A stretch of DNA of 64,000 bases from Myxococcus landrumus (GTDB taxonomy: Bacteria > Myxococcota > Myxococcia > Myxococcales > Myxococcaceae): assembly GCF_017301635.1 (NCBI RefSeq), contig NZ_CP071091.1:8486501-8550500 (forward strand), given 5' to 3'. Shown here one piece after another: positions 30,730-41,756 of the stretch (the stretch's first letter is position 1; every line of letters begins with the position of its first letter). The position numbers were made by a program, and so were the translations under genes. The notes beneath the pieces were generated by a model. The model made no database searches. It saw nothing but the letters and a program-made list of their open reading frames with translations, and was not told where the DNA came from.

Positions 30730-33700
30730 TCAGGGAGAGGAAGGGCGGGTGAGCAGCTCCACGTCGGAGGCGAGCCTGCCCTTCCACCACGCGGCGAGCG
30801 CGGGGTTGCGCGCCAGCGCTTCATCCGCGTCCGCGCGAGCCCGCTCGCGCCATACTTGTTGCTGAGTGGCGGGCGCGGAGCCCTGGGCCAATGCCCCTCT
30901 CAACCCGGCGCGCAGGAGCCGCGCTCGTGCCCACTGGGGCCGTGCGGCCAGGATGCGCTCCACGAACTCAATGCCGCGCATCAGCACGGGCGTCGCGTCC
31001 TCGCCCCGGCCCTGCTTCCATTGTCCCCAGGCGAGCTGAAGCTCCGCGGCGGCCAGCACGTACTCGTGCTTCCGGGGCGCCAGCTCCACCGCCTGCGCGA
31101 GCGCCTCCGCGGCCTTCTGGAAGTCCTCGTCCGTGGCGGCGCCCTTCAGCGCGCGATGTCGGGCGCGCACGTCGAGCACGCCGCCCTGGTAGCGCCAGGC
31201 GTACCCGAGGCGCGGATTGAGGGCCCGGGCGCGCGTGAGGGCTTCCTCCGCCTGGGCCAGGTCCGGGCCCACGTCGCGCTTTCGCTCCAACGCGTGCGTG
31301 GCCCACAGCACGTGGACCCGCGCCAGGTTGGTCCACATGTCCGCGTCACCTGGCAGCAGGTCCAGCGCCCGGCGGTAGTCCTCCTTCGCCGCGCGGAGGC
31401 TCGTGGTGGGGTCCTCGCCTCTCGCCAGGAGGAAGCCCGCGCGCACCGCCTGCACCTCGCCCAGGTTGTTGTAGGCGAATGACTGTTGTGGCGCGATGTC
31501 GCGAGCCTGCTCGAAGGCCTGTCGGGCCTCGGCCAGCAGGGGCTCCACGTCCTTGCCGTCCTCCCAGTGCTGCTCGGCCTGCCACAAGAGCGTGGCACCC
31601 TGTCCATTGGGGAGCTGGGGCAGCCGGGGGTTGATGTCCCGGCCCTGTTTGTAGAGCGCCAGCGCGCGCGCCACGTCCGGCTCCGGGTCCTGGCCGTGCT
31701 CCTGCTTCCAGCGCGCGAGCTGCTCGGACACGTCCGCGCCCTGGTAGCAGGCGATGACGTTGCGAGGGTTGAGCGCGAGCGCCTTCTCGATGGCCTCCAT
31801 GGCGCGGCGCAAGTCCCCCTGCGTGTCCGTCGCCTGGGGCAGGCCCGCCCGGGCCCGGTAGGAGTTGCCGAGGTTGATCCACGCGTCCGCCTGCGTCTCG
31901 CGCACGCGGATGGCCGCCAGGTACGTGTCGATGGCCTTGTCCTGGTGGGCGCGCGGGTCCAGGCCGTGCTCGTTCTCGTAGTCGGCCCAGATTTGATGGG
32001 TCAGCCCCAGCGTCGCGTAGAAGGCATAGTCGCGCTCCTCGGGGCTCAGCTGCTCCAGCGCCTCGACGGCCAGGCCGAGCTGCTTCCTCGGGTCCTGTGA
32101 GAGCCGCTGCTGGTGGCGGGCCCAGAGCCTGTGCGCGATGGCCAGCTCCAGCGTCACGCGGTCGCTGGGCGGCGCCAGCTTCAGCGCGGCCTGGGCCGCG
32201 TCGATGGCCTTGCCTAGGATGTCCTCCACGTCGCTCGCGTTCTGGTTGGCGTGCTGCTCGGCCAGGCGGCGGTGCAGGCGTGAGCGCACGATGAGCGAGG
32301 GATGGTGGTCCGGCGCGGCCTTCAGCGCGCGGTCCAGCGCCTCCAGTCCCTTCTGGTAGAGAGGCTGGATGTTGCCCGCCCCGTAGAGCTCCATGACCAG
32401 CGCGGCCAGCTCCAATCGCCCGAGCGCGTAGTGCCCCGCGGGCTGGCTCTCCGCGGTGGCGATGGCCTGGGCGTAGGCGCGCCGTCCGGCCTCCAGGTCC
32501 GCCTGGGAGCCCGCCGAGTCACCCTGGTGCCAGCGCCCCGCCGCGCGGGCGAGGTACACGTCGCCTCGCAGGAGCGGCGCCTCGTAGAACCAGGGGAGGG
32601 CCTCGCCCATCGCGTCCAGGTGCGCGAGCGCCTCCTCATGGTGTCCTTCGTGGAAGGCGAAGAGGGCCTTCACGTACAGCGGCGGCGCGGGGACGTCCGG
32701 CCCTTCCGCCTGTCGAAGGTAGGCGAGCGCGGGGTCGCGGTAGCGCTGCTCCAGCTCCCGGCGGCGCGCCTCCCGGTTCTCCGGGCTGCGGCGCTCCACG
32801 TCCAGCAGCAGCTTCTCGCGGTACTGGTCCCCCATCACCACCGCCAGCGCCCAGGCCGCGCGAGGCTCCCGGTAGCCATGCTCCCACGCGGCCTCGAGCT
32901 TCTTGCGCGCGCCCTCCACGTCTCCCAGCGCCCACAGCGCGCGGCCCAGGGCGTAGTTGCCGGGGCCCGCCGCGCGCCCGCCCGACTCGAGCACCTCCGC
33001 CTCCAGCGCCTCCATGCTCGCGCGCAGCGCCTTGCGGTCCTCGCGCGTGTCGTGCAGTCGCGAGAGGAACGAGTAGCGCGCGGACGCCTCGATGCGCTCC
33101 ACGCGCTCGGTGAAGCTGCGGGTGAGCCGCTCGCGCTCGGCCACCTCGCTCCGCGCGAGCACCGCCTGCCCCAGCGCCAGCGCGACCACCGTCAGCGCCG
33201 CCACCCCCAGGCTCAGCACCACGCGGTGCTTGCGCGCCTTCTTGCGCAGCCGGTAGCCCACGCCCCGCCGGGCCTGCACCGGCTCTCCGCCGAGGAAGTG
33301 CTCCAGGTCATCGGCCAGCGCCCTCGCCGAGTCGTAGCGGGCCGACCGCTCCTTCTCCAGGCACTTGAGGACGATGGCCTCCAGGTCCTCGGGGATGTCC
33401 CGGTCCAACGTGCGCGGCGGGGGCGGTTCCTCCGTCTGGAGCCGGGTGATGATGTCGTGCTCGTTGTCGCCGCTGAAGGGCGTGCGCCCGGTGAGCAGCA
33501 GGTACAGCGTGGCGCCCAGGCCATAGACATCCACGCGCCGGTCCAGCCGGGCCGTGTCGCCCCGGGCCTGCTCGGGGGCCATGTAGTGCGGCGTGCCCAT
33601 CACCACGCCGTGCATGCCCGCTTCCTCGCGCCAGTCGCGGGCGAGGCCGAAGTCCATGACGAAGGGCACGAAGTCGCCGTCTTCCGTGCGCTCCACCAGG

Positions 33701-34428
33701 ATGTTGCCGGGCTTGATGTCCCGGTGGACCAGGCCCGCGCGGTGCGCGGCGTGCACACCCTCCGCGGCCTGGCGCAGGAGCAGCACCTTCTGCTCGGGCG
33801 TCAGCGTCGGCGCGAGCTGTCCCAGGGACTGGCCCGCGACGTAGCGCATGGCGATGTAGCCGCGCCCCTGCACCTCGCCGACCTCGTACACCTCGCACAC
33901 CCGCTCGTGGCGCACGCGGGCCTGGGCGCGGGCCTCGGACAGGAAGCGCCGGGCCAGCTCCGGGTCTCCACCGCGCACGAACTTGAGCGCCACGTTGCGC
34001 CGCAAGAGCGGGTCATACGCCAGGAACACCTGCCCCATGCCGCCCTGGCCCAGGAAGCGCACGGGCTGGTAGCGGTCCCAGTCGGGGACCGGAAAGCCCG
34101 GCTCCGAGGCCGCGTCGGACGAGGCGGGCGCCTGCGGGGACACCACGGGCGTCTCCGGGTCCAGCGTGGCGGCCTCCAGCGGGCCGGGGCCCGTGCCCGC
34201 CGTGTCATCCACGTCGCGCGAGAGCTCGTCGCGCAGGGCACCGAGCGTGTACTCGCCCAGTCGCCCCTGCTCACTCAGGAGCTCCAGGGGGCTCCTGCCC
34301 TGGTCGAGCGCCTCCTCGCGCAGCCTGGCGGCCTCCTCTGCGGAGACGAGCCCTTCGTTCAGCGCGAGGAGCAGCTCCTCCTCGTACCTCTCCTGCGTCT
34401 TCCCCGCGATATCCACGGCCCCCAGCAT
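30730..34428 (-). CDS. Membrane Ser/Thr protein kinase with TPR sensor domain
   Basis: A 1232-residue Hanks-type kinase. Residues ~120-385 are the kinase domain: Gly loop FLGQGGMGQVF, Lys149 in VALKFV, HRDIKPGN (catalytic Asp237), DFGLA (259-261), and MAPEQ. A basic segment and one transmembrane helix (~403-424) follow. About 800 residues of TPR-type helical repeats make up the rest, on the far side of the membrane if the topology is simple. The first ~100 residues are helical, with an acidic, Pro-rich linker. The whole active site is intact. Start ATG 34428 has a weak ribosome site; GTG 34416 is an alternative. Myxobacteria have many such kinases; an FHA-type sigma-54 activator sits 549 bases beyond its 3' end on the other strand. 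Confidence 0.9.
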   Translation of the reverse strand: MLGAVDIAGKTQERYEEELLLALNEGLVSAEEAARLREEALDQGRSPLELLSEQGRLGEYTLGALRDELSRDVDDTAGTGPGPLEAATLDPETPVVSPQAPASSDAASEPGFPVPDWDRYQPVRFLGQGGMGQVFLAYDPLLRRNVALKFVRGGDPELARRFLSEARAQARVRHERVCEVYEVGEVQGRGYIAMRYVAGQSLGQLAPTLTPEQKVLLLRQAAEGVHAAHRAGLVHRDIKPGNILVERTEDGDFVPFVMDFGLARDWREEAGMHGVVMGTPHYMAPEQARGDTARLDRRVDVYGLGATLYLLLTGRTPFSGDNEHDIITRLQTEEPPPPRTLDRDIPEDLEAIVLKCLEKERSARYDSARALADDLEHFLGGEPVQARRGVGYRLRKKARKHRVVLSLGVAALTVVALALGQAVLARSEVAERERLTRSFTERVERIEASARYSFLSRLHDTREDRKALRASMEALEAEVLESGGRAAGPGNYALGRALWALGDVEGARKKLEAAWEHGYREPRAAWALAVVMGDQYREKLLLDVERRSPENREARRRELEQRYRDPALAYLRQAEGPDVPAPPLYVKALFAFHEGHHEEALAHLDAMGEALPWFYEAPLLRGDVYLARAAGRWHQGDSAGSQADLEAGRRAYAQAIATAESQPAGHYALGRLELAALVMELYGAGNIQPLYQKGLEALDRALKAAPDHHPSLIVRSRLHRRLAEQHANQNASDVEDILGKAIDAAQAALKLAPPSDRVTLELAIAHRLWARHQQRLSQDPRKQLGLAVEALEQLSPEERDYAFYATLGLTHQIWADYENEHGLDPRAHQDKAIDTYLAAIRVRETQADAWINLGNSYRARAGLPQATDTQGDLRRAMEAIEKALALNPRNVIACYQGADVSEQLARWKQEHGQDPEPDVARALALYKQGRDINPRLPQLPNGQGATLLWQAEQHWEDGKDVEPLLAEARQAFEQARDIAPQQSFAYNNLGEVQAVRAGFLLARGEDPTTSLRAAKEDYRRALDLLPGDADMWTNLARVHVLWATHALERKRDVGPDLAQAEEALTRARALNPRLGYAWRYQGGVLDVRARHRALKGAATDEDFQKAAEALAQAVELAPRKHEYVLAAAELQLAWGQWKQGRGEDATPVLMRGIEFVERILAARPQWARARLLRAGLRGALAQGSAPATQQQVWRERARADADEALARNPALAAWWKGRLASDVELLTRPSSP

Positions 34429-34532
34429 ACGGGGTTGCGTGGCCCGACGGGGAGACCCGCCGGGAGGTCCACGAGTCCCCGAGTTGGGGACTGGGGGAAG
34501 GGTGTGGACCTCCCGGCGGAAAGGGGACGGCC

Positions 34533-37500
34533 CTAGCGGCGCTTGTTGCGGCGGCGCAGGCCGAGCAGGCCCAGCAGCGCAATCCACGACGAGGCCGGAG
34601 CCGCGCTGCAGCCACCACCGGCGAACGAGCGCGTGTTCAGCACCGTCCACCGGTACTCGGCGGGGGTGGCGTCCACGTTGCCCGCCTCATCCACGGCGCG
34701 GACCCGCAGGGTGTGGTCACCGTGCGAGACGTCGTAGGTGGTGCCGCATGCGGTGTACGGGCCGCCGTTGAGGCTGCACTCGTACCGCACGCCGTTCTCG
34801 GTGGAGCCGTAGTCGAACTCGGCCTCCGTGGCATCGGTGCGGCCCGGGGGGCTGCGGACGAACGAGGTGTCCGGCGCCACCGTGTCGATGCGGAACGTAT
34901 CCACGTTGGAGACGGGGCTGACGTTGCCCGCCCGGTCCGCGGCCGTGGCCGTCACCGAGTGCGAGCCTTCCGCCATCGGCGTGGACGGCGTGCAGCTCCA
35001 GCGGCCGGCGTCATTCGTGACGGCGGTGCACAGCACCGTGGAGCCCTCGCGCACCGTCACCGTGGTGCCCGGCTCGGACGTGCCACTGATGACCGGCGTG
35101 TTGTCGTTGAGGAGCGAGCCCGGCGTGGGGCCGGTGATGACGGGGGCGGCCGGCGCCGTGGTGTCCACCGTGAAGGTGGTGGGCGCGGACGGGGGGCTGA
35201 CACTGCCACCGGGGTTGGTGGCGGTGGCCGTCACCGTGTGCGGCCCCTGGGGCAGCGGCGTGGACGGCGTGCAGCTCCAGCGGCCACTGGCGTCGGCCGT
35301 GGCGGTGCACAGCACCGTGGAGCCCTCGCGCACCGTCACCGTGGCGCCCGGCTCCGAGGTGCCGGTGATGGCCGGCGTCGGGGTCGGGACGATGGCTCCC
35401 GTGGCGGGACCGGTGATGACGGGCGGAGCGGGGGGCACCAACTGGATGACGATGTTCGTCGGAGGCGCCGTCTCCGTGGTGCCCAGCACCGTGGACGTGA
35501 CGACCACCGAGTGCGGACCCTCGGGGATGTTGCCCAGGTTGCAGGTCCAGTTCCCGTTGGCGTCGGTGACGGCGGTGCAGGCCGGGGTGGGGTTGCCGTC
35601 GACGTAGACGTGGATGGTGGTGCCCGGCGTCGCGGGACCGCCGATGACCGGGTCCGTCACGCCGCCAGGGCCCGGGTCCGTCACCACGGGGATGAGCTGG
35701 CAGATGGACAGCGAGTCCACGCGGAACGTGGCTGTCGTCGCCGAGTTGTTGTTGGTGGCGCAGTCGGTGTCGATGAAGGCCACGCGCACGTCACCCGTGG
35801 CCGCGTCGAAGTCGCGCCGCTCCGTGAAGCCCTGCTCCATGGCGGCCTCGCGGGTGGTGGACCCCGTCGTCGGGGGGACGCGTCCCAGCGAGAAGCGCTG
35901 CGCGCCGGTGCTGGTGGTGTGGTTGACGCCGAAGATGCCCGGGTACCACCGGGGGCTGCCGTCGTAGTCCGCCGCGCCGGAGACGTAGCTGATGCGGTAG
36001 CGGCCGGGAACCGTGAGCGCCGCCTGGATGGCCGCGTCCGGCAGGGTGGGCGTGCCGATGTTCGCCACCTGCGTGCACTCGTTGCGAGCGTGGCGGGTGA
36101 GGATGGTGTGCACGGCCTTGTTCTGGCAGCCGGAGCCGGACTCCACCGCGCAGGTGGCGCCGCAGCCGTCGCCCGCCGTGGTGTTGCCGTCGTCGCACGC
36201 TTCCGTGGCCGCCTTCACGCCGTCACCACACCGCACCGCGCAGTCCGAAGGGATGTCCAGGCAGGTGTAGCCCGTCTCGATGGTGCACGTGGCCGTGCAA
36301 CCATCGCCCGAGGTGGTGTTGGCGTCGTCGCACTGCTCGCTCCCGTCGAGCATTCCGTTGCCGCAGATGTTGGCGGTGACGCAGAGGTCCGAGTGGGGGT
36401 TGCAGGTGCCGCTCTCGCAGACGCCCGACGCGTTGCACGCCTGGCCGTTCTCCCACAGGCAGCGCGGCGAGCAGGTGTCGCCGCTCTGGAGGTTGCCGTC
36501 GTCGCAGACCTCGGCGCCGGCGACCACGCCGTCACCGCAGGTGGTGTTGCACGCGCTGGGAGCACCGCTGCACGAATAGCCGGGCTCCGTCGCGCAGACG
36601 CCGCTGCACCCGTCGCCCGCGGTGGTGTTGCCGTCGTCGCACGTCTCTCCCGCGTTCAGCGCGCCGTTGCCACAGCTCTGCGTACACGTGGAGGCCCCGT
36701 TCGTGGGCCGGGTGCAGACGTAGCCGGACTCCACCGCGCAGGTGGCGTTGCAGCCATCGTTCGCCACGGTGTTGCCGTCGTCACACGCCTCGGTGCCCGC
36801 GACGAAGCCGTCGCCGCAGGTGGTGGTGCAGACGGACGGAGCGACCGTGCAGGAGTAGCCCGTCTCCACGCCGCAGCCGGAGGAGCAGCCGTCGCCCGAC
36901 GTGGTGTTGCCGTCGTCGCACGTCTCGTTCGGGTCCTGGACGTTGTTGCCGCAAGACAGGACGCACACGGAAGGCGCGTTCGTGGGCCGGCTGCAAGCGT
37001 AGCCGGGCTCCACGCGGCACTCGGTGGCGCAGCCGTCATTGGGGTTGAGGTTGCCGTCGTCGCACTGCTCGCCCGGGTTCACCACGCCGTTGCCGCACGT
37101 GTTCACACAGGCCTGGCCCGGGGTGGGGCACGAGGCGCCCAGCTCCAGGGTGCAGGCGACGGAGCAGCCATCGCCCATGTTGGTGTTGCCGTCGTCGCAC
37201 AGCTCGCCGGGGTTGAGCTGGCCGTTGCCGCACAGCGGGGCGCAAGCCGAGGGGGCGCCGCTGCACTCATAGCCGCTCTCGATGCGGCAGGCCGCGGAGC
37301 AGCCATCGCTGCCCAGCGTGTTGCCGTCGTCGCACTGCTCACCGGCGTTGAGCTGGCCGTTGCCGCAGGTGGCGACACAGGCCTGGCCCGGGGTGGGGCA
37401 CGCGTGGCCGGACTCCACGCGGCAGCTCGCGTTGCAGCCGTCGCCCGCCGTCGTGTTTCCATCGTCGCACTGCTCTCCGGCGTTGAGCTGGCCGTTGCCA

Positions 37501-38678
37501 CACGTGCGCGCGCAGGAGCTGGGGGAACCCGCGCAGCCGTAGCCGGGCTCGATGCCGCAGCTCGCGCTGCAGCCATCGTTGTTGGCCGTGTTGCCGTCGT
37601 CGCACTCCTCGCGCGGAGACACGGCGCCGTCACCGCAGCGGTCGTCGTAGGCGTCCACGAAGATGTAGCGGAACGCGTTGGGCTCCGAGGCCCCGTTCTC
37701 GTTGCACAGCTCGATGCTGTTGAGGCCCGTGCGCCAGCCGGCCGTCGAACCGAACTCCCGGATGATGCTCTTCTGCCAGGGCATGCCACCCGGCTCGCTC
37801 ACCGTGATGGGCGTGAAGTTCGCCCCGTTCACCGTCGCGTGGTCGAACTCGTTGTCATTGAACGTCGCCAGGCGCAGGCGGAACTGGGAGACCTTGGTGG
37901 TCGAGGGGATGATGAACCGCTGGTAGACACACGTCGGGGCACCCAGGGGCGCCGCCATGAAGCGCGCCGTCTGGATTTCCTGCGGCCAGTCCTGGGCCGC
38001 ACGCGTGCCGGTGGCCGCACCCTGGTTGTTGCTGGTGTAGAACCAGTGCGGGTCCAGGCCGGACTCCAGCCGACGGTTGTTCTGGTCCACGCCGGTGTTG
38101 AAGACCACGACGCCCGCCCTCACGCAGCGGCTGGGCGCACCCGCGCAGGCGAAGCCGGGTTCGACTTCACACATGCGGTTGCAGCCGTCGCCCTCGGCGC
38201 GGTTGCCGTCGTCGCAAATCTCCTGGTCGAAGTTGGGCCACTCGCGGTTGTTGAACGCGCCGTTGCCGCACAGCGACAGGTCACAGGTGGCGGAGCAGCC
38301 GTTGTTGCCCGCCACCGTGTCGCCGTCGTCGCAGGCCTCGCCGGCGTTGACCACGTCGTTGCCGCACAGCGAGGAGAGGGAGCATGCCCGCCCGGGCACG
38401 TGGCACAGGTAGCCCGCCTCGATGGTGCCCGTGGCGGAGCAGCCATCGCCGCTCACCGTGTTGCCGTCGTCGCACTGCTCACCGGGCTGCAGCCGGCCGT
38501 CGCCCACGAGCGCGGAGGACTGGCTGGAGACCAGGACCTCCTCGGAGGCGGAGGACGGAGGCGTGGGCTCGCAGCCGGTGAGGGCCGCGAAGAGCGCGAG
38601 CGTGAGGGCCGCGCGGAGCCCGGCGCGCGCGGGCGACCGGGGCTCGGGACAGAAGGGTTCAGGGACTCGTGTCGTCAT
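34533..38678 (-). CDS. Cys-rich surface lipoprotein with DUF4215 repeats, Ig-like domains and MYXO-CTERM (TraA-like layout)
   Basis: A 1381-residue cell-surface protein. The N-terminus ends in a lipobox (AALTGC, Cys36). There are 14 DUF4215 repeats of the form CGNG..N.GE.CDDGNT..GDGC, split by a ~150-residue beta-rich module after repeat 3 ([20 protein letters not shown] onwards). A second module (~860-990, [17 protein letters not shown] onwards) follows, then three Ig-like domains ([19 protein letters not shown] type), one further beta domain with [19 protein letters not shown], and a C-terminal MYXO-CTERM signal: GGCSAAP, a hydrophobic helix, and [18 protein letters not shown] proteins are processed by myxosortase and displayed on the outer membrane. 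The gene lies 12 bases after an OmpA/TSP3 gene, as traA lies with traB in Myxococcus. Confidence 0.9.
36130..38530 (-). repeat. Array of 14 DUF4215-encoding repeats
   Basis: Degenerate repeats of about 105-115 bp with a strongly conserved core encoding CDDGNT (tgcgacgacggcaac in the coding sense), interrupted at about 37660-38110 by a non-repeat module. Each encodes a Cys-rich knot of ~36 residues with six cysteines. Confidence 0.85.
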
Positions 38679-38690
38679 GGAGTGTCTGCC

Positions 38691-40538
38691 TCACTTCTCG
38701 AGGGTGTCGGCCCCGGGGGTTCCCTGCTTCGTCTCGACGCCCTCGGCGTCACCGACGATGCGGAACTCCACGCGGCGGTTCTTGGCGCGGCCTGGCTTGG
38801 TGGTGTTCTCGGCGATGGGCTTCTTCGGGCCGTAGCCCTGCGCGTCCAGCCGCTCGCGGCTGACCGTCTTGCCCACCAGGTACTTCACCACCGCCTCGGC
38901 GCGACGCCGGGAGAGGTCCAGGTTGTAGTCTTCCTTGCCCGTGTTGTCGGTGTGGCCCTCGACGCGCAGCTTCTCGATTTCAGGGTGCGACGCGAGGATG
39001 GCCGCCACGCTGTCGAGCAGCTTGTGGCTGCGCGCGCTGATGACGTCCTGGTTGTTCTCGAAGAAGACCGACTCGAGGATGCGAATCTGCCCCTCGCCAA
39101 TCTGCGCGAGCTGCTTCTGCTTGCAGCCGTGGTTCTTCTCCGTCCCGGGCTCATCCGGGCAGTTGTCCAGCCGGTCCACGAGTCCATCGCCGTCGCGGTC
39201 CTTGTCCGGGCAGCCGCGGTTCTCCTTCGGGCCCGCCTCGTTCATGCAGGCATCGCGCGCGTCCGCCACGCCGTCCTGGTCATTGTCCGGGTCCGGGCAG
39301 CCGTTGCCGTCCTCGAAGCCGTCCACGTCCTCGGCCTTGTCCGGGCACGCGTCCTTGGAGTCCGCGAGTCCATCGCCGTCCGAGTCCGGGTCATCCGGGC
39401 AGCCGTCGGAGTCCTCGAAGCCGTTGAGGTTCTCCGCCTGGGCCGGGCAGCGGTCCGCCAGGTTGAGCAGGCCATCCTGGTCGTCATCCGTGTCCGCGCA
39501 GCCGTTGAGCTGGGCGAGGCCGGGCGACACCGGGCAGCGGTCCGCGAAGTTCTTCACGCCGTCGCCATCCGCGTCCAGGTCGGGACAGCGGGCCGCGTCG
39601 TGGGGCTGGCCCGCGACACATGAAGCGACCTTCGTGCCCTCGGGGCCGAAGTTGACGCCCGCCAGCACGCGGAACTCGGGCGTGCCGGGCGTCTGGCCGA
39701 AGCCAGGGCCGCCCATGATGTAGAACTCGGTGCCCTCGGTCCGGGCGCTGCGCAGACCCAGCAGCACCTCGAGCGACTCGGGCGCGTCCGCGAACGGCAG
39801 CGTGCCGCGCACCACCAGCTCTTCCCGCAAACCAAACAGCTCGGCGGTGACGTTGACGCCGCCGTTCATCTCCACGCCCATCTCATCGCGCAGCGGCGTC
39901 GCGCCGGGGGTGAGGGCGTACGTCTTGCTCCTCACGAGCGCGCCCACGTCCGCGCCCACGCGCCACGTGTCGGCCAGCCGCTTGCCGAGCCCCAGTCGCG
40001 GGGTGAAGACGAAGCCATCATCCTTGGTGAGCACCTCTTCGCTGCCCAGGGGCAGGGCCACACCCAGGTGCAGGCCGAGGTCGAGCGGGCCTCCGCGCGA
40101 CTCGGACAGGATGCCCGCGCGCGCCTGGAGCCAGGGCGTGCCCAGCGCGCTGGTCGACGGCGTCTCGAAGCCCAGCGCCCGCGTGTTCGGGCCCCACTGC
40201 GCGACCACCGGCACCTGCGCGCCGACTTCCAACCAGTCCGTCAGGCCATAGGCGCCGCTGAAGTGCACCGTCACGCGGTCGGAGACGATGGTGCCCTGCC
40301 GCTCGTCGTTGCGCAGAAGCACCAGCGGCCTGCGCTGGTAGTGGGCCGTCATGCCCAGGCGGAAGGTGTCATCCGGCAGCAGGTCGCCCGTGGACAGCAC
40401 GAGGCTGTCCTTCGCGCCGGGGTTCAACTGCAGCCGCTCCAGCTCCAGGCTGGGGATCCGCTGGGTCTGTGCCTCAGCGGAAAACGCACAGAGGACGGCC
40501 AGTCCTCCGAGCAAGGATGCGTGACTTCTCGGTTTCAA
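38691..40538 (-). CDS. OmpA-family outer-membrane protein with TSP3 repeats (TraB-like layout)
   Basis: A 615-residue outer-membrane protein. The start is TTG 40538: GGAGGA lies 5 bases upstream and it gives a clean signal peptide (KPRSHASLLGGLAVLCAFSAEA|QTQ); the open frame upstream lacks this. Residues ~25-300 form a beta-barrel (LGMTAHYQRRPLVLL, WLEVGAQVPVVAQ, GLHLGVALPLGS). They are followed by calcium-binding thrombospondin type 3 repeats (DLDADGDGVKNFADRCP, DSDGDGLADSKDACP and others). The C-terminal OmpA domain binds peptidoglycan (VEGHTDNTGKEDYNLDLSRRRAEAV). It is the first gene of a two-gene operon with the Cys-rich MYXO-CTERM lipoprotein. TraB of Myxococcus has the same barrel plus OmpA design. 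Confidence 0.9.
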   Translation of the reverse strand: MKPRSHASLLGGLAVLCAFSAEAQTQRIPSLELERLQLNPGAKDSLVLSTGDLLPDDTFRLGMTAHYQRRPLVLLRNDERQGTIVSDRVTVHFSGAYGLTDWLEVGAQVPVVAQWGPNTRALGFETPSTSALGTPWLQARAGILSESRGGPLDLGLHLGVALPLGSEEVLTKDDGFVFTPRLGLGKRLADTWRVGADVGALVRSKTYALTPGATPLRDEMGVEMNGGVNVTAELFGLREELVVRGTLPFADAPESLEVLLGLRSARTEGTEFYIMGGPGFGQTPGTPEFRVLAGVNFGPEGTKVASCVAGQPHDAARCPDLDADGDGVKNFADRCPVSPGLAQLNGCADTDDDQDGLLNLADRCPAQAENLNGFEDSDGCPDDPDSDGDGLADSKDACPDKAEDVDGFEDGNGCPDPDNDQDGVADARDACMNEAGPKENRGCPDKDRDGDGLVDRLDNCPDEPGTEKNHGCKQKQLAQIGEGQIRILESVFFENNQDVISARSHKLLDSVAAILASHPEIEKLRVEGHTDNTGKEDYNLDLSRRRAEAVVKYLVGKTVSRERLDAQGYGPKKPIAENTTKPGRAKNRRVEFRIVGDAEGVETKQGTPGADTLEK

Positions 40539-40667
40539 GAGTTCCTCCACGTCCACGCGGCTCCGTGAGAGCGCGCGACCTTCGACCACCCCGTTGGGTG
40601 CGCCGGCACAGTTGCACGGCGCGGGCCAGGGTGTCGTGAGGTGGACGGAGGAACCTATGCGTCAGGT

Positions 40668-40792: not shown

Positions 40793-41683
40793 TCAGCCCT
40801 GGGCGAGGGAGGCCGCGTCCAGGCCCGCGTCGGCCATGAGCAGGGCCAGCTCCGCCTTGAGCTTGTCCTTGGCGCGAATCTCGAGCTGACGGGCGCGCTC
40901 GCGGGAGAAGCCGAAGTGCTCACCCAGCTCGCTGAGCGTCATCTCCGAGTCGCCCATCACGCGGTTCTCGATGATGAAGCGCTCGCGCGGGTCCAGCCGG
41001 CGAAGCGCGCGCTGGACCAGGTCCTTGGCGAGCCCCGCCTGCTGGCGGTCCGCGACTTCGTCCTCGTGGGATGCGGAGGCCGACTCCACGAAGTCCAGGT
41101 GGGTGGCGTCACCGTCCTCGCCCACCGGCGCATCCAGCGACAGGTCGCGGCCGCCCATGCGCTGCTCCATCTCGCGCACTTCGGAAGCCTTCACGTTGAG
41201 CTTGCGCGCAATCTCCTCCGCGTTGACGACGCTCGCGTCACCGGCGCCCATGCGCTCCAGCTCGCGGCGCGTGCGCGCCAGGCTGAAGAAGAGCCGGCGC
41301 TGCGCCTGCGTGGTGCCCAGCTTCACCAGGCTCCAGTTGCGCAGGATGCAGTTCTGGATGTACGCGCGAATCCACCAGACCGCGTAGGAGATGAGGCGGA
41401 TGCCCTTGTCCGGGTCGAACTTCTGCACCGCCTTCATCAGGCCGATGTTCGCCTCCTGGATGAGGTCGGACATCTTCAGCCCGTAGGAGCGGTACTCGTA
41501 GGCCACCTTCACCACGAAGCGCAGGTTGGCCGTCACCAACTGGTGCCCCGCCATCAGGTCACCCTTGCGGAAGCGACGTGACAGCTCCTGCTCCTGCGGC
41601 TGCGTCAACAGCGGGTATTGGTTGATCTCCGAGAGGTACGTGGAGAGGGAGTCCGGGGAGGAGAAGTGAGAAGAGTCCTGCAT
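40793..41683 (-). CDS. Sigma-32 (RpoH)-type alternative sigma factor
   Basis: A 296-residue sigma-70-family factor of the RpoH-like group typical of Myxococcus SigB/SigC. Region 1.2 is [20 protein letters not shown]. Region 2 contains [59 protein letters not shown], the core-binding and -10 recognition helices. Region 4 ends with [26 protein letters not shown]. The start ATG 41683 gives an N-terminus like known family members; the longer frame upstream overlaps a sigma-54 promoter match. Which Myxococcus paralogue it equals cannot be decided here. Confidence 0.88.
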
Positions 41684-41741
41684 GGCATCTCTCGGGGAAG
41701 GGGGCCGTTGGGAGCCGCGTTGGGCGGCCTGGGGCTCCTTC

Positions 41742-41756
41742 GCAATGCGCATGCCA
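41742..41756 (-). promoter_or_regulatory. Sigma-54 (-24/-12) promoter candidate for the sigma-factor gene
   Basis: On the minus strand the sequence reads TGGCAT-GCGCA-TTGC. This fits the sigma-54 consensus TGGCAC-N5-TTGC with one mismatch and exact GG-to-GC spacing. The transcription start would be ~12 bases downstream, near 41730, leaving a leader of ~47 bases before ATG 41683. No other candidate promoter was seen in this 277-base gap. Confidence 0.55.

What the first reader, a model, noticed from the sequence alone, without database searches (positions are those of the whole stretch)
34533..40538. TraB-TraA-like operon: OmpA/TSP3 barrel plus giant Cys-rich MYXO-CTERM lipoprotein
Seen: a barrel/TSP3/OmpA-domain protein is followed after 12 bases by a 1381-residue protein with 14 DUF4215 Cys-rich repeats, two extra beta modules, three Ig-like domains and a MYXO-CTERM tail. 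Known: TraA of Myxococcus is a polymorphic outer-membrane receptor with Cys-rich repeats and MYXO-CTERM that works with OmpA-type TraB in kin recognition and outer-membrane exchange. Here the A-like protein is about twice the size and adds Ig domains. Inferred: this is a paralogous recognition or adhesion pair and may display variable specificity through its non-repeat modules.
Basis: partly seen in the sequence, partly recalled or inferred. Interest (0 to 1): 0.75.

Follow-up and report, generated by a model that had tools for sequence, protein, structure and literature searches.

The report
Myxobacterial surface adhesin with membrane anchor
Two neighbouring genes of a social soil bacterium encode a giant sticky surface protein and an outer-membrane barrel that probably clamps it to the cell wall; the plan resembles the known TraA/TraB kin-recognition pair, but the sticky part is a different, non-variable protein, and the two belong to a larger family of such paired or fused genes.

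Summary
P0002 (barrel, TSP3, OmpA) is followed after 12 bases by P0001 (1381 aa: 14 DUF4215 repeats, two extra beta modules, Ig domains, MYXO-CTERM). P0002 is a distant TraB paralogue (268.9 bits; TraB cut-off 700). P0001 is not TraA-like: no TraA N-terminal domain, another Cys-repeat family, a lipoprotein signal, reversed gene order. The true traAB lies elsewhere in the genome. Variable specificity fails a calibrated test: in 33 close genome pairs the TraA variable domain averages 72.6% identity (down to 49%), P0001's modules 92.4 and 91.5%. The pairing is strongly conserved: every P0002 orthologue found (52 genomes) has a P0001-type gene beside it. More widely, 37 of 61 TraB-like barrels sit beside (28) or are fused to (9) a MYXO-CTERM protein, four more by eye. 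In this genome's fusions the internal MYXO-CTERM is followed at once by a second signal peptide. Best reading: a wall-anchored adhesin with conserved, perhaps glycan-directed binding, one branch of a family of MYXO-CTERM adhesin plus barrel-anchor pairs that includes TraAB. One fused member (MXAN_5598) was already likened to TraAB in print; I did not find the wider family described.

The parts
38691..40589 (-). P0002, upstream gene: TraB-like protein; signal peptide, outer-membrane barrel (residues ~42-320), TSP3 Ca-binding repeats (~321-490), OmpA peptidoglycan-binding domain (~500-615); true start probably GTG at 40550
   Evidence: PDB 5wtl (TSP3-OmpA) E 1e-53
34533..38678 (-). P0001, downstream gene: 1381-aa Cys-rich surface protein (97 Cys)
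38571..38678 (-). P0001 signal peptide with lipoprotein lipobox LTGC (Cys36)
   Evidence: sequence; L-[TS]-G-C in 26 of 26 alignable proteins of the genus
38124..38507 (-). first block of DUF4215/TIGR02232 Cys-rich repeats
37638..38123 (-). module 1 (residues 186-347): galactose-binding / CBM35-like beta sandwich, low-confidence model
36123..37637 (-). second block of DUF4215/TIGR02232 Cys-rich repeats
35649..36134 (-). module 2 (residues ~849-1010): jelly-roll-like beta domain, absent in some orthologues
34644..35648 (-). Ig-like region (Big_13 / Ca_tandemer, then OmpL47-like)
   Evidence: PDB 2yn3 E 8e-10
34536..34622 (-). MYXO-CTERM sorting tag [29 protein letters not shown]
   Evidence: TIGR03382 21.7 bits (cut-off 15.85); Cys conserved in 26 of 27
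38679..38690 (-). 12-base gap between the two ORFs; about -4 to +21 bases in orthologues

Best explanation
A bicistronic operon makes a two-part surface adhesin. Shown: adjacency, domain make-up, conservation of both lipid-anchor motifs, and non-variability. Inferred: P0002 sits in the outer membrane by its barrel, with the TSP3 rod and OmpA domain reaching down to clamp peptidoglycan. P0001 is exported by Sec, gets a lipid at Cys36 and probably another at the MYXO-CTERM cysteine after myxosortase cleavage, and is displayed outside as a disulphide-stiffened repeat chain held at both ends. Its conserved module 1 (CBM35/galactose-binding-like) and, where present, module 2 bind a conserved ligand, most likely a polysaccharide of the matrix, of kin cells or of prey. 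P0002 transmits the load to the wall. It works like TraA/TraB in mechanics (surface binder plus wall-anchored barrel), not in allele-specific kin recognition.
For: P0002 matches the TraB profile over barrel and OmpA (268.9 bits) and the TSP3-OmpA structure 5wtl (1e-53). All 49 genomes with module 1 have a P0002 orthologue just upstream on the same strand, and 3 further genomes with a P0002 orthologue have a P0001 relative with lipobox and MYXO-CTERM beside it. In a survey of 61 TraB-like barrels, 24 have a MYXO-CTERM gene directly downstream, 4 upstream and 9 are fused to one, four more by eye; elsewhere in the same regions about 1.5% of ORFs have such tails. The fusion label changes at least 6 times on a barrel tree, so fused and split states interconvert. 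Both lipidation motifs are near-invariant in the genus. Modules are as conserved as repeats in close pairs. The module 1 model lies nearest CBM35 and other sugar-binding domains.
Against: No interaction between the two proteins is shown; adjacency and fusion are indirect. Module models are weak (pLDDT 59 and 72, best Z 7.5 and 7.1, best Foldseek E 3e-3), so the glycan reading is tentative. The modules are missing in some orthologues, so neither is needed for the core function. About 20 of 61 TraB-like barrels still lack a visible MYXO-CTERM partner. Survey rows are related, so the Fisher value (8e-34) overstates the evidence.
Confidence: 0.6

Rival explanations
1. P0002 is chiefly a display helper: its barrel guides or stabilises P0001 at the surface during export, and wall anchoring is secondary.
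For: The same genetic pairing and fusions fit a chaperone or exporter role; PMC3325183 raised such a role for TraB.
Against: MYXO-CTERM proteins, TraA included, are reported to cross the outer membrane by the type II secretion system (PMC11980579), so no dedicated pore is needed. The OmpA and TSP3 parts are well conserved and typical of wall anchoring.
Confidence: 0.15
2. The genes are only co-transcribed: P0002 is a general envelope stabiliser and P0001 an independent matrix- or prey-binding surface protein.
For: About 20 of 61 TraB-like barrels have no visible MYXO-CTERM partner; one barrel in this genome stands alone (L035) and one is followed by a FecR-domain gene (L026).
Against: 52 of 52 genomes keep the pair in a tight operon-like layout, and related barrels are fused to MYXO-CTERM adhesins on several branches.
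Confidence: 0.16
3. One reading: a paralogous TraA/TraB recognition pair with variable specificity, possibly driving outer-membrane exchange.
For: TraB-like partner, Cys-rich stalk and MYXO-CTERM are shared with TraAB.
Against: No TraA N-terminal domain, hhalign 0.1-0.2%, different repeat family, modules not polymorphic while the TraA variable domain is, reversed order, P0002 outside the TraB branch, true traAB present elsewhere.
Confidence: 0.07

Closest known systems
TraA/TraB outer-membrane exchange pair (MXAN_6895 / MXAN_6898)
   Same: two-gene operon; barrel-TSP3-OmpA partner; long Cys-rich surface protein with MYXO-CTERM
   Different: TraA has a polymorphic PA14-like domain, TIGR04201 repeats and a type I signal peptide; order traA-traB with a 4-base overlap. 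Here: no PA14 match, TIGR02232/DUF4215 repeats, CBM-like modules, Ig domains, lipobox, order B-A with a 12-base gap
MXAN_5598-type fusion (AgmC N-terminal domain), present in this genome at L025:3123-10754
   Same: MYXO-CTERM adhesin joined to a TraB-like barrel and OmpA domain; likened to TraA plus TraB in PMC11980579
   Different: one polypeptide with internal MYXO-CTERM and second signal peptide; different adhesin domains; its barrel groups with TraB, not with P0002
MXAN_4924 (TraA paralogue)
   Same: Cys-rich MYXO-CTERM surface protein
   Different: has the TraA PA14-like domain (PMC3325183); no TraB-like neighbour in the regions read
OmpA-family protein of PDB entry 5wtl (TSP3-OmpA)
   Same: TSP3 rod followed by OmpA domain, E 1e-53 to P0002 339-612
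   Different: the solved chain covers only the periplasmic part; no MYXO-CTERM partner is known to me

Membership tests
TraA (NF033759 / TIGR04566) | N-terminal PA14-like variable domain | tested here: not met
   no match at E<=1; own TraA scores 327 bits against TIGR04566; hhalign of modules vs variable domain 0.1-0.2% (shallow alignments)
TraA (NF033759 / TIGR04566) | TIGR04201 Cys-rich repeats | tested here: not met
   P0001 has TIGR02232 repeats instead (588 bits); TraA has TIGR04201
TraA (NF033759 / TIGR04566) | polymorphic recognition domain | tested here: not met
   close pairs: modules 92.4 and 91.5% vs TraA variable domain 72.6%; species-level, not within-species, data
TraA (NF033759 / TIGR04566) | C-terminal MYXO-CTERM | tested here: met
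   TIGR03382 21.7 bits, cut-off 15.85
TraB (NF033763) | score over the curated cut-off of 700 bits | tested here: not met
   268.9 bits; own TraB 1014 bits
TraB (NF033763) | barrel + TSP3 + OmpA architecture | tested here: met
   barrel assigned by profile similarity to TraB, not by a structure model
TraB (NF033763) | same branch as TraB on a barrel-OmpA tree | tested here: not met
   TraB with the AgmC-type fusion and L026 (100/93), P0002 in the other group; long branches, midpoint root
TraAB outer-membrane exchange system | drives lipid and lipoprotein exchange on contact | not testable with these tools
   needs a transfer assay
MYXO-CTERM adhesin + TraB-like barrel pairs (grouping proposed here) | MYXO-CTERM gene adjacent or fused to a TraB-like barrel gene | tested here: met
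CBM35 / galactose-binding-like domain (module 1) | beta-sandwich fold of that class | tested here: inconclusive
   pLDDT 59; Foldseek top hit 2w1w E 3e-3, TM 0.45; Z 7.0 to 2w47, rmsd 3.3, 119 aligned
PA14 domain (modules 1 and 2) | PA14 fold | tested here: inconclusive
   no Pfam match; models too weak to exclude the fold

The most novel reading that the evidence does not exclude
TraAB is one specialised branch of a broad, previously unnamed class of myxobacterial cell-surface machines, each made of a MYXO-CTERM binder and a wall-clamped TraB-like barrel. They are encoded as A-B or B-A operons or as single precursors with an internal MYXO-CTERM followed by a second signal peptide, cut into binder and anchor. 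The binder is exchangeable (PA14, DUF4215 plus CBM-like, Ig/AgmC, Kelch), so one anchoring scheme serves kin recognition, gliding and other adhesion. The DUF4215 member would be held to the membrane at both ends.
Probability: 0.45. Interest if true: 0.68.

Novelty: new variant of a known kind. Interest (0 to 1): 0.52.

Why it matters
Gram-negative cells must hold large surface adhesins under load. If TraB-like barrels are general wall anchors for MYXO-CTERM adhesins, the puzzling TraA-TraB partnership becomes one case of a common design, and many paired genes in myxobacteria become testable as adhesion devices for motility, predation or multicellular development. The fused precursors also offer a direct test of myxosortase acting inside a polypeptide, and a ready set of binder-anchor pairs known to belong together.

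Tried and rejected
P0001 as a TraA homologue: rejected. Variable specificity: rejected at species level with the TraA variable domain as control. Modules as known Pfam or PDB families by sequence: nothing (one search hits only the Ig region). Structure of modules: low to medium confidence; PA14 is not among the listed matches, which proves nothing. TIGR03901 over the whole genome finds only 9 strong hits and misses TraA's tail, so it was not used to count MYXO-CTERM proteins. A link to the sigma-32-like gene upstream was dropped: it was found beside the pair only in the four closest genomes. Promoter scan gave none, terminators no clear excess. Literature on AgmC, on DUF4215 with MYXO-CTERM, or on TIGR02232 in this library: none.
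Full report
OBSERVATION. The window lies in a complete 10.37-Mb chromosome at 8486501-8550500. One relative, G069, has exactly the length I remember for Myxococcus stipitatus DSM 14675 (memory, not tested), and named relatives are Myxococcus, Pyxidicoccus, Citreicoccus and Corallococcus. Added here: P0001 has a lipoprotein lipobox (LTGC, Cys36), kept in 26 of 26 alignable proteins of the genus, besides a MYXO-CTERM whose cysteine is kept in 26 of 27; the exception, G076, has a shortened ORF.

THE REAL TRAAB. The genome holds true traA and traB about 0.8 Mb away (L024: TraB 1014 bits, TraA 1127 bits, overlapping by 4 bases in the order traA-traB), and all 27 genomes of the genus have a TraA over the cut-off. 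P0002 scores 268.9 bits against TraB (cut-off 700): a distant paralogue. On a tree of 67 barrel-OmpA proteins TraB groups with the AgmC-type fusion and the L026 barrel, and P0002 with its orthologues lies in the other, large group (long branches, midpoint root, so a lead rather than proof).

IS P0001 TRAA-LIKE? No TraA model matches at E<=1. Its Cys repeats are TIGR02232/DUF4215, not the TIGR04201 repeats of TraA. Profile comparison of both modules with the TraA variable domain gives 0.1-0.2% probability (alignments are shallow).

DO THE MODULES VARY? I compared the same 27 genomes for P0001, P0002 and, as positive control, TraA. In the 33 pairs with P0002 at least 90% identical, mean identities are: P0001 first repeats 92.9, module 1 92.4, second repeats 89.8, module 2 91.5, Ig 90.7, P0002 95.1, TraA stalk 92.9, TraA variable domain 72.6, the last falling to 49-53% in several pairs such as G075/G078. 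Over all pairs module 1 (79.7%) is more conserved than the second repeat block (75.8%), while module 2 (63.8%) drifts like the Ig part. So the allelic signature of a recognition domain is absent. What does vary is module content between lineages: Corallococcus shows no module 2, G006 has module 2 but no module 1, and G004 and G007 have short proteins in which I see neither, yet these keep lipobox, Cys-rich repeats, Ig part and MYXO-CTERM. This is one genome per species; within-species variation was not tested.

PAIRING. All 49 genomes with module 1 (of 96 of the family searched) have a P0002 orthologue just upstream on the same strand (compared by coordinates; ORFs read in 26 genus neighbours and others). 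G004, G006 and G007 keep a P0002 orthologue with a P0001 relative beside it. Gaps run from about -4 to +21 bases.

A WIDER FAMILY. In this genome other TraB-like barrels also sit with MYXO-CTERM proteins: L033 (475-aa barrel-OmpA gene overlapping a 1792-aa Ig adhesin with AgmC_N similarity), L025 (2543-aa fusion, AgmC_N 404 bits, matching by architecture the MXAN_5598 fusion of PMC11980579) and L029 (1899-aa Kelch/HYR fusion). In both fusions the internal MYXO-CTERM is followed directly by a second signal peptide, so binder and anchor could both reach the periplasm and be cut apart (inferred). I then read about 60 regions around TraB-like barrels of other genomes: of 61 barrels with a readable ORF, 24 have a MYXO-CTERM gene directly downstream, 4 directly upstream, 9 are fused and 24 show none by my pattern, of which four (L297, L308, L313, L326) do have such tails by eye. 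Elsewhere in the same regions about 7 of 475 ORFs carry such tails. The fusion label needs at least 6 changes on the tree. Rows are related, so the Fisher value of 8e-34 is descriptive only. The regions came from matches to P0002, and the tail pattern is my own.

STRUCTURE. P0002 339-612 matches the solved TSP3-OmpA chain 5wtl at 1e-53. The modules have no significant sequence match in Pfam or the PDB. Models: module 1 pLDDT 59, nearest CBM35 and other sugar-binding beta sandwiches (Foldseek E 3e-3; Z about 7); module 2 pLDDT 72, nearest jelly-roll folds of the TNF/C1q, lectin and capsid kind (Z up to 7.1). These Z values are in the range that unrelated models reach, so the glycan reading is a lead.

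MECHANISM AND NOVELTY. The best reading is a wall-anchored surface adhesin that works like TraA/TraB in mechanics but with a conserved ligand. What is known: TraAB, the MXAN_5598 fusion likened to it (PMC11980579), MXAN_4924 as a TraA paralogue (PMC3325183), and myxosortase sorting of MYXO-CTERM proteins (PMC11980579). What I did not find in the library searched: this DUF4215 pair, the reversed B-A order, the double lipid-anchor motifs, or the general association of TraB-like barrels with MYXO-CTERM proteins. Supplementary tables, which list the M. xanthus MYXO-CTERM proteins, could not be opened, so parts may be known there.

Noticed in passing
L025:3123-10754 (residues ~1920-1975) and L029:7495-13194 (residues ~1310-1370): Two adhesin-barrel fusions with an internal MYXO-CTERM directly followed by a second signal peptide, suggesting a precursor cut into two surface parts.
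   Followed up: partly
L033:7217-14019: A second separate pair in the same B-A order, overlapping by 4 bases, whose 1792-aa Ig adhesin resembles the AgmC N-terminal domain.
   Followed up: partly
window 32302-34536 (+): 744-aa convergent gene without any Pfam or NCBIfam match, syntenic beside the pair in most orthologous loci.
   Followed up: partly
window 40793-41752 (-): Sigma-32 (RpoH)-like factor upstream of the pair; found beside it only in the closest genomes, where it is 99-100% identical over 293 residues, far more conserved than its neighbours.
   Followed up: partly
G060, G065, G066, G075-G078 (L338-L341): A second TraA-like protein of about 500 aa in 7 of 27 genomes of the genus; it fits the known paralogue MXAN_4924 and has no TraB-like neighbour in the regions read.
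   Followed up: yes
L182:3951-7307: P0001 orthologue of G076 lacks the MYXO-CTERM end (1118 aa): a frame break or an assembly error.
   Followed up: no
   Followed up: partly
window 34713-39623 (+): 1636-codon open frame antisense to P0001 and P0002, probably a by-product of high GC content.
   Followed up: no
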